NCBI GenBank assembly: GCA_034231615.1
Contig: CM067316.1
Span: forward strand, 25,443,791-25,507,790
Source: Meghimatium bilineatum
Lineage: Eukaryota > Mollusca > Gastropoda > Stylommatophora > Philomycidae
DNA: 64,000 nt
Direction: 5' to 3'
In this document: piece by piece, positions 7,842 through 38,085 of the stretch
How the letters are laid out: each line of letters begins with the position of its first letter
Position numbering within the stretch: position 1 is the first letter of the stretch
Translations under genes and position numbers: made by a program
Notes under the pieces: generated by a model
What the model was told of the DNA's origin: nothing
What the model saw: only the letters and a program-made list of their open reading frames with translations
Databases searched by the model: none

Positions 7842-9200
7842 TTACTTTAAATGGGTCCTTTCCAGTTGGTAATCTTGTATGGCACACAAACTTGGCCACA
7901 TAAGTTTTGAGGTGTTGTCTAGATTTTCAGCGATTTTTTTTTTTGTATTTTTCCATTTGACGCTACCCCACATTGTCTCAACTGTTTTCATATGTACCCC
8001 TGTTTCTGGATCAAGTAAATATAAGTAGGAAGCCAGAGGACAATTAAACAATTTTTTGAGACTAACGGGAATTGAACCAGTCCGTTCAACGGCACCAAAT
8101 CGCCTAGCAACTATTGAACACGCGTTCTTCCATACTTGACTAACCGCATCTCCAAAAAAAGATGCGATTTCATCAAGCCTTTCAAACCGTGCACAAAAAG
8201 TCACCAGAACGGACCGATCGAGACAAGGACTATTACAACAACAACAAACATCCCGTACAGGTATTATGTTATATGTGTGTTGTTACTGAGGATATATCAA
8301 TACCTGTACGGGATGTTTGTTGTTGTTGTAATAGTCCTTGTCTCGATCAGTCCGTTCTGGTGACTTTGTGTGCACGGTTTGAAAGGCTTGATGAAATCGC
8401 ATCTTTTTTTGGAGATGCGGTTAGTCAAGTACGGAAGAACGCGTGTTCAATAGTTGCTAGGCGATTTGGTGCCGTTGAACGGACTGGTTCAATTCCTGTT
8501 AGTCTCAAAATATTCTGGATCAACTAAATTGTATTGGTGGTTCACTCAATACTGTTCCAAGCCTGCTGCTTCGATATCTGTACTCTTGTATCCTTTCCAT
8601 GAGTTGAAGTAGATTGTAGACTCTACATTAGCAATAATGGCTTGCAAGAACGTTGGTGCATTTCTGCTCAGCACTGGCACCAAAAAGACTTCGCTCATTT
8701 CATGGCACACTCCACCAAAAATCCATTGTTGTTTCAGGGCTCTTCCAACATTGTTCTTCCATTAGGAAAACAGGCTTTTATCGATTTCCACAATTTTGTC
8801 ATCTCCTCCAATGCGACTGCCCTGTAATGTTAAAAGGGATGACACACAAACTTCATGAAGGAAAGTGTTTCATTCAATAATGGCGTTTTTATTAATCTGC
8901 ATCTCTCGGAAACACCACTTTATTGAGCTGGTTTTCATAGCCCAATAATAAACAAAGTGGATAACATCCACTCGAGCAATTATGTATTCTCTAAACATGT
9001 GCCGCTTTGGATCTCTATGTTGCTTGTACTGGCATCTGTGCACATCCAGTGAATTCTCTCACCAGCATAGAAATTAACCCTCAAGGAATGGCCTAGCATG
9101 CAACACAGTTTTTGACGGCAATATTCCATGATCTTGCAGAAATGAGACAGCATCATTGGACTGCAACAGTCAGTTGCCAATCCAACCCACATTTCCTTTT
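7842..9200 (-). mobile_element. Merlin-type DNA transposon (ISXO2/IS1595-like transposase), broken
   Basis: Minus-strand translation, with several frame changes, gives VGWIGN near 9,190, then IGGDDKIVEIDKSLFS, KNNVGRALKQQWIFGG, EVFLVPVLSRNAP, TIYFNSWKGYKST and NHQYNLVDPE. After an interruption come TGVHMKTVETMWGSVKWKN and further C-terminal sequence. The VEID...., WIFGG, DSWKGY-like and VETMWGSVKW blocks identify the IS1595/Merlin transposase family (DDE catalysis). The expected middle Asp of the DSWKGY block reads Asn (FNSWKGY). The gene is a pseudogene, interrupted by the palindrome at 8,015-8,512. Terminal repeats were not located. Confidence 0.82.
8015..8512. mobile_element. Fold-back element (212-bp arms) inside Merlin transposase
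   Basis: Left arm 8,054-8,265 and right arm 8,299-8,510 are near-perfect reverse complements with a 33-bp spacer. The whole insert is bracketed by an 11-bp direct repeat, TTCTGGATCAA, at 8,004-8,014 and 8,513-8,523. It splits the transposase codons for VDPE from DPETGVH, which is what a target-site duplication predicts. The left end has about 39 bp outside the arm, the right end almost none. Both arms encode the same short open stretch (RFERLDEIASFFGDAVSQV), but this is probably incidental. Confidence 0.85.
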
Positions 9201-35940: not shown

Positions 35941-36228
35941 CCCCATTCTCCACTTCTTATCTTAACGAAGGACTATTATCTGAAAGCCAGTTTGGTTTCA
36001 GAAAACAACGTGGAACAACTGATATGGTCTTTGCTGAAAGACTACTTCAAGATATTATCGTGAATTCGATTTGAGCTAAACTTGAGTGTGCGCGCATCTC
36101 TCGCCTACTGAATATAAATATCCAAAAACAAAAGCCATAATAATCAGTACAGTCACAGAAGAACAGGCACTAAACACAAACATACGTGGAGAGAAACTAC
36201 AAGTAAAACACTATCATTATCTTGGATC
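35941..36228 (+). mobile_element. LINE fragment: RT palm, continuation
   Basis: LNEGLLSESQFGFRKQRGTT and DMVFAERLLQDI (RT motif around QFGFR) continue the element broken at 34,038. After a gap, KTKAIIISTVTEEQALNTNI and KLQVKHYHYLGS form the palm/thumb stretch of another LINE. Confidence 0.78.
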
Positions 36229-36855
36229 ATCATCATCATTAAGTGTCGTCTCCGCAACGAAGGTTGGCTGCAACGTATCTCCAATATCTCCTGTCTTGGT
36301 GGTGCACTCTGCTAGACTGTAACCTGTCCATCGTGTAATGTTACTCTCCCACTTGTATCTCTGCCTACCTCTTGCTCGCTTCCCTTTGACTTTACCCTCA
36401 AGTAAGGTCTTCAATAGGGTGTCATGTCTTTTAATGTGTCTAAAGTATTTTATTTGCCTGATCTTCATTTCTCTTAGTAGTTCTTTCTTCATATTAAGTG
36501 TCTTTAGCACCTCTTTATTTGTTTTCTTCTCTTTCCATCATGTTCTCCCTATTCTTCTATATACCCACATCTCAAAGGCATCAATTTTGTCTTCTAATTG
36601 TTTATTTAGTGTCCATGTTTCTGAGCCATACATTAATATGGAATAGATGTAGCATTTTATAATTCTCATTTTTAACTTGTTTGTAATTGTTTAGATATTA
36701 ATAATTTCCTCATGTCATTGAAGGTACTTTTAGCCATTCCTATTCTCCTTTTAACTTCTGTTTCACATCTGCCATCATTTGTGACTATGTGTCCAAGATA
36801 TTGATACTGTTTTACTTGTTGTAGTTTCTCTCCCTGTATGTTTATGTTTACCTCC
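36217..36855 (-). mobile_element. LINE 3' half, left arm of an inverted pair
   Basis: The minus strand gives YQYLGHIVTNDGRC, KRRIGMAKSTFNDM, YGSETWTLNKQLEDKIDAFE, IGRT, MKIRQIKYFRHIKRHDTLLK, TLLEGKVKGKRARGRQRYKW and SNITRWTGYSLAECT. It is broken by frame changes. Confidence 0.85.
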
Positions 36856-36857
36856 TT

Positions 36858-37425
36858 ATCTTGGATATATAATCACAAATGACGGCAGATGTGAAATGTG
36901 TTAAAAGGAGAATAGGAATGGCTAAAAGAACTTTCAATGACATGAGGAAAATATTAACATCTAAACAAATTACAAACAAGTTAGAAATGAGAATTATAAA
37001 ATGCTACATCTATTCTATATTAATGTGTGGCTCAGAAACATGGACACTAAATAAATAATTAGAAGACAGAATTGATGCCTTTGAGATGTGGATATGTAGA
37101 AGAATAGGGAGAACATTATGGAAAGAGTAGAAAACAAACAAAGAGGTTCTAACAACACTTAATATGAAAAAAGAATTATTAAAGGAAATAAAGATCAAGC
37201 AAATACAATATTTTGGACACATTAAAAGACATGAGAACTTGTTGAAGACCTTACTTGAGGGTAAAGTTGAAGGAAGCAAGCGAGAGGAAGGCAGAGATAC
37301 AAGTGGGAGAGTAGCATCACAAGATGGACAGGTTACAGTCTAGCAGATTGCACTAACAAGAGACAGGATGTTGGAGGTCTCTTGTAGCTAACCTTTGTTG
37401 CGGAGATGGCACTTGATGATGAAGA
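36858..37425 (+). mobile_element. LINE 3' half, right arm of an inverted pair
   Basis: YLGYIITNDGRCE, KRRIGMAKRTFNDMRK, YSILMCGSETWTLNK and QIQYFGHIKRHENLLKTLLE show the same LINE as the left arm, running the other way. The arms match closely over ~550 bp with a ~50-bp centre. Confidence 0.85.
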
Positions 37426-37427
37426 TG

Positions 37428-38085
37428 ATGATACATCTCCCCCCTAAGTAATATTCAACTTGTTTACATCTCTCCCTAAGTAATATTGAACTTGTATACA
37501 TCTCTCCCTAAGTAATATTCAACTTGTATACATCTCTCCATAAGTAATATTCAACTTGTATATATCTCTCCCTAAGTAATATTCAACTTGTATACATCTC
37601 CCCGTAAGTAATATTCAACTTGTATATATCTCTCCCTAAGTAATATTGAACTTGTATACATCTCTCCATAAGTAATATTCAACTTGTATATATATATACA
37701 TCTCTCCCTAAGTAATGTTCAACTTGTTTACATCTCTCCTAAGTAATATTGAACTTGTATACATCTCTCCCTAAGTAATATTCAACTTGTATACATCTCC
37801 CTCTAAGAAATATTCAACTTGTATACATCTCCCCCTAAGTAGTATTGAACTTGTATACATCTCTCCCTAAGTAATATTGAACTTGTATACATCTCCCCCT
37901 AAGTAATATTGAACTTGTATACATCTCCCCCTAAGTAATATTCAATGTGTATACATCTCTCCCTAAGTAATATTGAACTTGTATACATCTCCCCCTAAGT
38001 AATATTAAACTTGTTTACACCTCCCCCTAAGTAATATTCAACTTGTTTACATTTCTCCCTAAGTAATATTGAACTTGACTCCGTT
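37428..38085. repeat. Minisatellite, 32-bp unit, about 20 copies
   Basis: The unit is ACATCTCTCCCTAAGTAATA followed by TTGAACTTGTAT. TCTCTCC and TCCCCCC, and GAACTT and CAACTT, alternate among copies. Weak outlying copies extend to about 38,510. Confidence 0.95.

What the first reader, a model, noticed from the sequence alone, without database searches (positions are those of the whole stretch)
8004..8523. Palindrome with two equal 212-bp arms inserted in a Merlin transposase
Arms 8,054-8,265 and 8,299-8,510 are near identical in reverse with a 33-bp loop, and an 11-bp duplication of host codons flanks the unit. Arms this well matched are young or kept alike by conversion. The 11-bp duplication does not fit Merlin or piggyBac and resembles Mutator-type or fold-back elements. 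A transcript would form a long hairpin and could feed small-RNA production.
Basis: partly seen in the sequence, partly recalled or inferred. Interest (0 to 1): 0.7.

Follow-up and report, generated by a model that had tools for sequence, protein, structure and literature searches.

The report
Two-way retrotransposon insert, Penelope-like
The long palindrome is a young two-armed copy of a small, thousands-strong non-coding retroelement that appears to insert the way Penelope-like elements do, with both cut DNA strands copying related or identical RNA, rather than a fold-back DNA transposon or an assembly error.

Summary
The palindrome is real: arms 8050-8265 and 8299-8514, 98% matched, 33-nt loop, 11-bp target duplication. 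In 28 of 29 paralogous Merlin-type copies the joined site aligns gap-free. The insert (8015-8512) belongs to a dispersed 384-bp repeat unit; one 25-mer from it occurs exactly 4,609 times. Opposite-strand neighbours within 1 kb are head-to-head in 18 of 18 (of 100 listed places), as are 25 of 25 two-strand inserts among 44 loci, the window included. Of 20 head-to-head inserts with both ends classifiable, 18 carry a ~40-nt tail at one end only and none at both. The two arms of an insert share rare variants about 20-fold above permuted pairs, 14-fold without the two strongest loci. In 11 of 18 each arm holds sequence the other lacks, which excludes simple self-priming for those. This matches published Penelope-like (PLE) anatomy; PLE RTs are abundant in this genome and 10 of 10 opposite-strand close pairs are head-to-head. 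No hammerhead ribozyme and no autonomous PLE carrying the unit were found in the few loci examined. Mutator/fold-back is not supported.

The parts
8004..8014 (.). Left target-site duplication TTCTGGATCAA
   Evidence: one copy in the empty-site alignments, 28 of 29 gap-free
8015..8512 (.). Whole insert, 498 bp, head-to-head pair of partial copies of the 384-bp unit
8015..8049 (-). Tail (unit positions about 344-381; the next three unit letters coincide with the duplication), present at this end only
8050..8265 (-). Tail-bearing (T) arm, unit positions from about 343 down to about 130, antisense
8266..8298 (+). Single-copy loop, unit positions about 97-129, present only in the N arm
   Evidence: BLAST lets the N arm begin at 8256 (unit 87) with mismatches, a 10-nt overlap with the T arm
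8299..8512 (+). Tail-less (N) arm, sense, ending about 40 nt upstream of the tail end
8486..8496 (+). GGTTCAATTCC, like the pol III B-box consensus as recalled; no tRNA found by ARAGORN or Rfam
8513..8523 (.). Right target-site duplication TTCTGGATCAA
7845..9058 (-). Host: decayed Merlin-type transposase copy interrupted by the insert
   Evidence: DNA match to paralogues tested over 7850-8823; to 9058 by eye from the translations; PF12762 in paralogue L041

Best explanation
The palindrome is one integration event of a short retroelement, apparently non-coding, mobilised in trans by Penelope-like (PLE) machinery. Shown: the ends, the empty site, a dispersed family, fixed head-to-head polarity, one-tail-one-no-tail ends, head-to-tail units joined end to start, and source variants shared by the two arms across the family. 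Inferred: a PLE protein cuts both target strands about 11-17 bp apart; each 3' end primes reverse transcription on the same RNA (or on RNAs from one source locus). One strand starts at the downstream site (T), the other about 40 nt upstream (N). The two cDNAs run toward the RNA 5' end and are joined head-to-head, so the overlap becomes a palindrome and the part reached by one arm only becomes the loop.
For: Empty sites 28 of 29. Head-to-head 18, tail-to-tail 0 among opposite-strand neighbours within 1 kb of the first 100 listed places; 25 of 25 two-strand inserts among 44 loci. Ends: 18 of 20 mixed T/N, 2 NN, 0 TT; binomial 1.7e-4 under independent ends, computed after seeing the data. Target duplications scored in 23 of 44 loci, against 2 in total over 20 shuffles of mismatched flanks. 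Rare variants shared by both arms: 29 in 4,012 non-CpG columns over 21 loci, rate 0.00723 against a permuted mean of 0.00036-0.00037, 0 of 1,000 permutations in each of two runs; without L076 and L079, 14 in 3,559, 0.00393 against 0.00028, again 0 of 1,000. Each arm has sequence absent from the other in 11 of 18, the window included. PLE RT matches in this genome: 10 of 10 opposite-strand neighbours under 8 kb are head-to-head; L090 has direct and inverted pseudo-LTRs around a 992-aa frame. Published PLEs: head-to-head pLTRs, an optional 31-bp tail, 8-10 bp duplications (PMC3846280, passages); a PLE protein that cuts and extends both strands and starts at two adjacent sites whose interval is the tail (PMC11167929, parts 1-2 of 4 and passages).
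Against: No autonomous PLE with this unit was found, but only ten PLE-search loci (L081-L090) were examined; the one short match (L082/L084, the same place) lies outside that PLE's conserved part. No hammerhead ribozyme. Two of 20 head-to-head inserts have N at both ends and 5 of 25 have an end outside both classes. No TSD was scored in 21 of 44 loci. The window's own arms share no rare variant, and 11 of 21 loci share none; 15 of the 29 shared variants come from two loci. Arm joints are not generally microhomology: 8 of 25 overlap by 1-10 nt, 3 are flush, 14 have 2-25 unassigned bases. PMC11167929 saw no overall difference in start site between strands. The 44 loci were picked by similarity to the arm or spacer. 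Shared variants could also come from sister RNAs of one source locus or from later conversion.
Confidence: 0.75

Rival explanations
1. Twin priming by a LINE-type reverse transcriptase: a SINE-like RNA mobilised by a LINE, with the second nick priming internally at the A/T-rich stretch near the end of the unit.
For: Target duplications scored at 12-17 bp, 5' truncation, and short joint overlaps in 8 of 25 also suit LINE products (recalled); a B-box-like 11-mer is present. No LINE search was made.
Against: The outer ends fall at two fixed sites about 40 nt apart, one at each end, in 18 of 20; long overlaps of the two arms and 384-bp head-to-tail units are common; no poly-A tail seen in the copies printed; no tRNA hit. 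The tail signature is described as unique to PLEs (PMC11167929).
Confidence: 0.15
2. Self-priming: one transcript or cDNA snaps back and copies itself, as hypothesised for PLEs in the 2013 Adineta vaga paper (PMC3846280).
For: It would make palindromes with related arms; in 6 of 18 T/N inserts the T arm reaches further upstream than the N arm and could have templated it, and 1 is about equal.
Against: In 11 of 18 inserts, the window included, each arm has sequence the other lacks, so neither can be a simple copy of the other. A self-copied arm should end at the same site as its template, yet 18 of 20 have unlike ends.
Confidence: 0.07
3. A fold-back or Mutator-type DNA transposon with long terminal inverted repeats.
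For: Long arms and an 11-bp duplication in this one copy.
Against: The ends are unlike; one-directional, truncated and tandem copies are common; duplication length varies.
Confidence: 0.01
4. Assembly inversion duplicate.
For: None found; raw reads were not available.
Against: Target duplication plus 28 of 29 gap-free empty paralogous sites; the same architecture at many loci with different duplications.
Confidence: 0.01

Closest known systems
Penelope-like elements (PLEs)
   Same: Head-to-head inverted and head-to-tail direct copies, a 30-40 nt optional tail at one end, short target duplications, 5' truncation
   Different: The unit is 384 bp, too short for an RT plus GIY-YIG frame (it was not itself scanned against protein families); no hammerhead motif; autonomous partner not identified; duplications here score 11-17 bp against 8-10 in the passages seen
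Metazoan non-LTR retrozymes (PMC7229834, outline and passages seen)
   Same: Tandem units of 150-450 bp, G+C below 50% (37.5% here), dispersed; published co-occurrence with PLEs
   Different: Retrozymes are defined by type I hammerhead ribozymes; none detected here. The terms inverted and head-to-head have 0 occurrences in that paper's main text
LINE twin-priming inversions (recalled)
   Same: Two cDNAs from two target nicks joined head-to-head
   Different: Here the outer ends lie at two fixed sites and the arms often overlap for one to several hundred bases
tRNA-derived SINEs (recalled)
   Same: Short, high copy number, B-box-like 11-mer
   Different: No tRNA match; head-to-tail units; unlike fixed ends

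Membership tests
Penelope-like element (as a product of its machinery) | Head-to-head inverted arrangement | tested here: met
   18 of 18 opposite-strand neighbours within 1 kb; 25 of 25 two-strand inserts
Penelope-like element (as a product of its machinery) | Tail of 30-40 nt at one end only | tested here: met
   18 of 20 head-to-head inserts with both ends classifiable; 2 of 20 without tail; 5 further inserts not classifiable
Penelope-like element (as a product of its machinery) | Tandem or partial-tandem units | tested here: met
   Spacing 382-388 in 9 of 9 same-strand pairs within 1 kb. Joints exactly 384|1: 33 of 36, of which 7 of 8 in arm-query loci and 26 of 28 in loci found with a query that spans this joint
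Penelope-like element (autonomous member) | RT plus GIY-YIG frame | tested here: not met
   The unit is 384 bp; one PLE query against the loci then held and the window hit only L082, L083 and an opposite-strand fragment in L016; divergent PLEs could be missed
Penelope-like element (non-autonomous derivative) | pLTR or tail shared with an autonomous PLE | tested here: inconclusive
   No match in L081-L090 beyond a 26-bp stretch outside the PLE's conserved part
Metazoan retrozyme | Type I hammerhead ribozyme in the unit | tested here: not met
   Rfam scans of L072 and L010, L056, L001, and a motif scan of the unit
tRNA-SINE | tRNA-related head | tested here: not met
   ARAGORN 0 genes, no Rfam tRNA match; a B-box-like 11-mer only
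Mutator / fold-back transposon | Matching terminal inverted repeats at both ends | tested here: not met
   Tail at one end only in the window; 19 of 44 loci one-directional

The most novel reading that the evidence does not exclude
A ribozyme-free, 384-bp parasite of Penelope-like elements, with thousands of copies, whose insertions record the PLE integration reaction: both target strands prime on one RNA, each from a different one of two fixed start sites, and the cDNAs meet head-to-head. This argues against the self-priming model for PLEs.
Probability: 0.4. Interest if true: 0.7.

Novelty: new variant of a known kind. Interest (0 to 1): 0.5.

Why it matters
How PLEs integrate is open: a 2013 paper hypothesised self-priming and asked for further experiments, and a 2024 in vitro study found cutting and extension of both strands and two start sites but left later steps to be validated. 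A family with thousands of copies, many of them young two-armed inserts, is a natural record of that reaction. The coupling of tail and no-tail ends, the non-nested arms and the shared source variants are statistics that can separate the models. Dispersed long inverted repeats of this size are also candidate sources of double-stranded RNA (not tested).

Tried and rejected
Rejected: fold-back/Mutator (unlike ends, one-directional and tandem copies); tRNA-SINE (no tRNA hit); retrozyme (no hammerhead); gene conversion as a need for this pair of arms; L082 as the autonomous partner: its 26-bp match to the unit lies beyond the region conserved among its relatives. Among the 60 longest of 743 flank-to-flank matches printed, apart from loci fetched twice and segmental copies, none pointed to an internal region shared by many unit loci. 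The sub-threshold miRNA-family matches at the palindrome apex are what a long hairpin can give. Promoter/terminator scan: 0 sites; it covers bacterial signals only.

Papers: of PMC7229834 I saw the outline with abstract and passages; of PMC11167929 parts 1-2 of 4 and passages; of PMC3846280 passages only. In the listings of seven paper searches (one search found 0) no title or abstract start described a short PLE-type family with coupled tail/no-tail ends; no other paper was opened.

Sampling: of 50 unit loci fetched, six were dropped as the same place or near-identical copies of another (L051, L054, L067, L068, L073, L080), leaving 44, the window's own locus L001 included. One search used 21 of the 25 head-to-head loci (both arms over 60 columns). 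One search used the 100 places that one search listed of 4,609; between 1 and 20 kb apart there were four further neighbour pairs, one of them tail-to-tail at 5.5 kb. One search scored 131 of 19,542 first-look candidates.

Full report
Observation. The window holds inverted arms 8050-8265 and 8299-8514 (98% complementary, 33-nt loop) and the 11-bp direct repeat TTCTGGATCAA at 8004-8014 and 8513-8523. The RNA fold is far beyond shuffles (z -47.9, 0 of 100). The flanks belong to a dispersed Merlin-type element (129 first-look candidates, 40 scored); a paralogue's 268-aa frame matches PF12762 (the name Merlin is recalled). Of 29 paralogues compared, 28 run through the joined flank 8014|8524 without a gap near the joint, so the insert is 8015-8512 and the duplication 11 bp.

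Family. The arm is a dispersed repeat: 2,355 first-look candidates, and one 25-mer from it occurs exactly 4,609 times against 0 for the reversed control. A 384-bp unit, taken from one locus (L010), describes the copies. The window insert reads, left to right, antisense unit positions 384 to 130, then sense 87 to 339 as aligned by BLAST with a 10-nt overlap that includes mismatches.

Polarity. Among the 100 places listed, neighbours within 1 kb are 18 head-to-head, 0 tail-to-tail and 9 same-strand spaced 382-388. They form 73 clusters, 18 of which contain a head-to-head pair; about 0.2 pairs are expected from density alone. In 44 distinct fetched loci, 25 are two-strand, all head-to-head, and 19 one-directional. 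Same-strand joints are exactly 384|1 in 33 of 36: 7 of 8 in loci found with the arm, 26 of 28 in loci found with a query that spans this joint and so favours it.

Ends. The outer ends fall in two classes: T (positions 370-384, with tail) and N (335-352, without). Of 25 head-to-head inserts, 20 have both ends in a class: 18 T/N, 2 N/N, 0 T/T; the other five have at least one end outside the classes. One-directional inserts end at N in 15 and at T in 4 of 19. Under independent ends the chance of 18 or more mixed of 20 is 1.7e-4, a test set after seeing the data. Target duplications were scored in 23 of 44 loci, lengths 12-17 with up to one mismatch (the window's 11 exact letters score as 17 with one mismatch), against 2 in total in 20 shuffles of mismatched flanks.

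One source RNA. Against family letters, the two arms of a locus share 29 rare non-CpG variants in 4,012 columns over 21 loci, rate 0.00723, versus a permuted mean of 0.00037 (0 of 1,000 permutations reach it); arms also differ less than permuted pairs, 0.025 against a permuted minimum of 0.034. The signal is uneven: 11 of 21 loci share none and L076 and L079 give 15 of the 29. Without those two the rate is 0.00393 against 0.00028, still 0 of 1,000. The window's own arms share no rare variant, so the claim of one source rests on the family; the four differences of its 212-bp arms are two private changes each, three at CpG, which fits decay after insertion.

Not self-copied. In the window the tail is only in the T arm and the loop only in the N arm, so neither arm can be a simple copy of the other. 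The N arm reaches further upstream in 11 of 18 T/N inserts, the T arm in 6, and 1 is about equal. The six are compatible with self-copying, the eleven are not. The joints between arms overlap by 1-10 nt in 8 of 25, are flush in 3, and have 2-25 unassigned bases in 14, so how the two cDNAs are sealed is left open.

Comparison. PLEs are described with head-to-head pLTRs, an optional 31-bp tail at one inverted end, 8-10 bp duplications and partial tandems, and self-priming was hypothesised for them (PMC3846280, passages). A purified PLE protein cuts and extends both strands and starts at two adjacent sites whose interval is the tail (PMC11167929). That study saw no overall difference in start site between the strands; the coupling seen here is per insert and was not tested there in the parts I saw. 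PLE RTs are abundant in this genome: 133 matches from 131 scored of 19,542 first-look candidates; of 12 neighbour pairs under 8 kb, 10 are head-to-head, 2 same-strand and none tail-to-tail. L090 has direct and inverted pseudo-LTRs around a 992-aa frame; its GIY-YIG match is below the Pfam cut-off. None of the ten loci L081-L090 carries the unit beyond a 26-bp stretch, and no hammerhead was found. The element works like a PLE product; family membership stays unproven.

Limits.

Noticed in passing
L090 (G000:C1:108897400-108902200) and the list: A large, homogeneous PLE family in this genome: 93 of 133 listed RT matches stand at 63-64% identity to the query, 89 of these 93 without a stop inside, with open frames up to 992 aa, suggesting a recent burst.
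   Followed up: partly
window 36226-37429: A second large palindrome, arms 36383-36688 / 36968-37273 (91%) with outer and inner extensions; no match to the 384-bp unit.
   Followed up: partly
window 8223-8341: The palindrome apex matches miRNA-precursor families mir-982 and mir-3327 below their gathering cut-offs; such matches are expected of a long hairpin.
   Followed up: partly
L016 847-1260: A PLE RT/endonuclease fragment about 190 bp from a unit insertion, on the opposite strand; the unit there has its own 12-bp target duplication.
   Followed up: partly
L066, L067, L068, L080 (C5:11.84-12.07 Mb): Four near-identical loci in one region of contig C5, apparently a segmental duplication carrying one unit insertion.
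   Followed up: no
L082 2534-2559: A 26-bp stretch at 88% identity to unit positions 321-346 at a minisatellite edge downstream of a PLE, outside that PLE's conserved part.
   Followed up: yes
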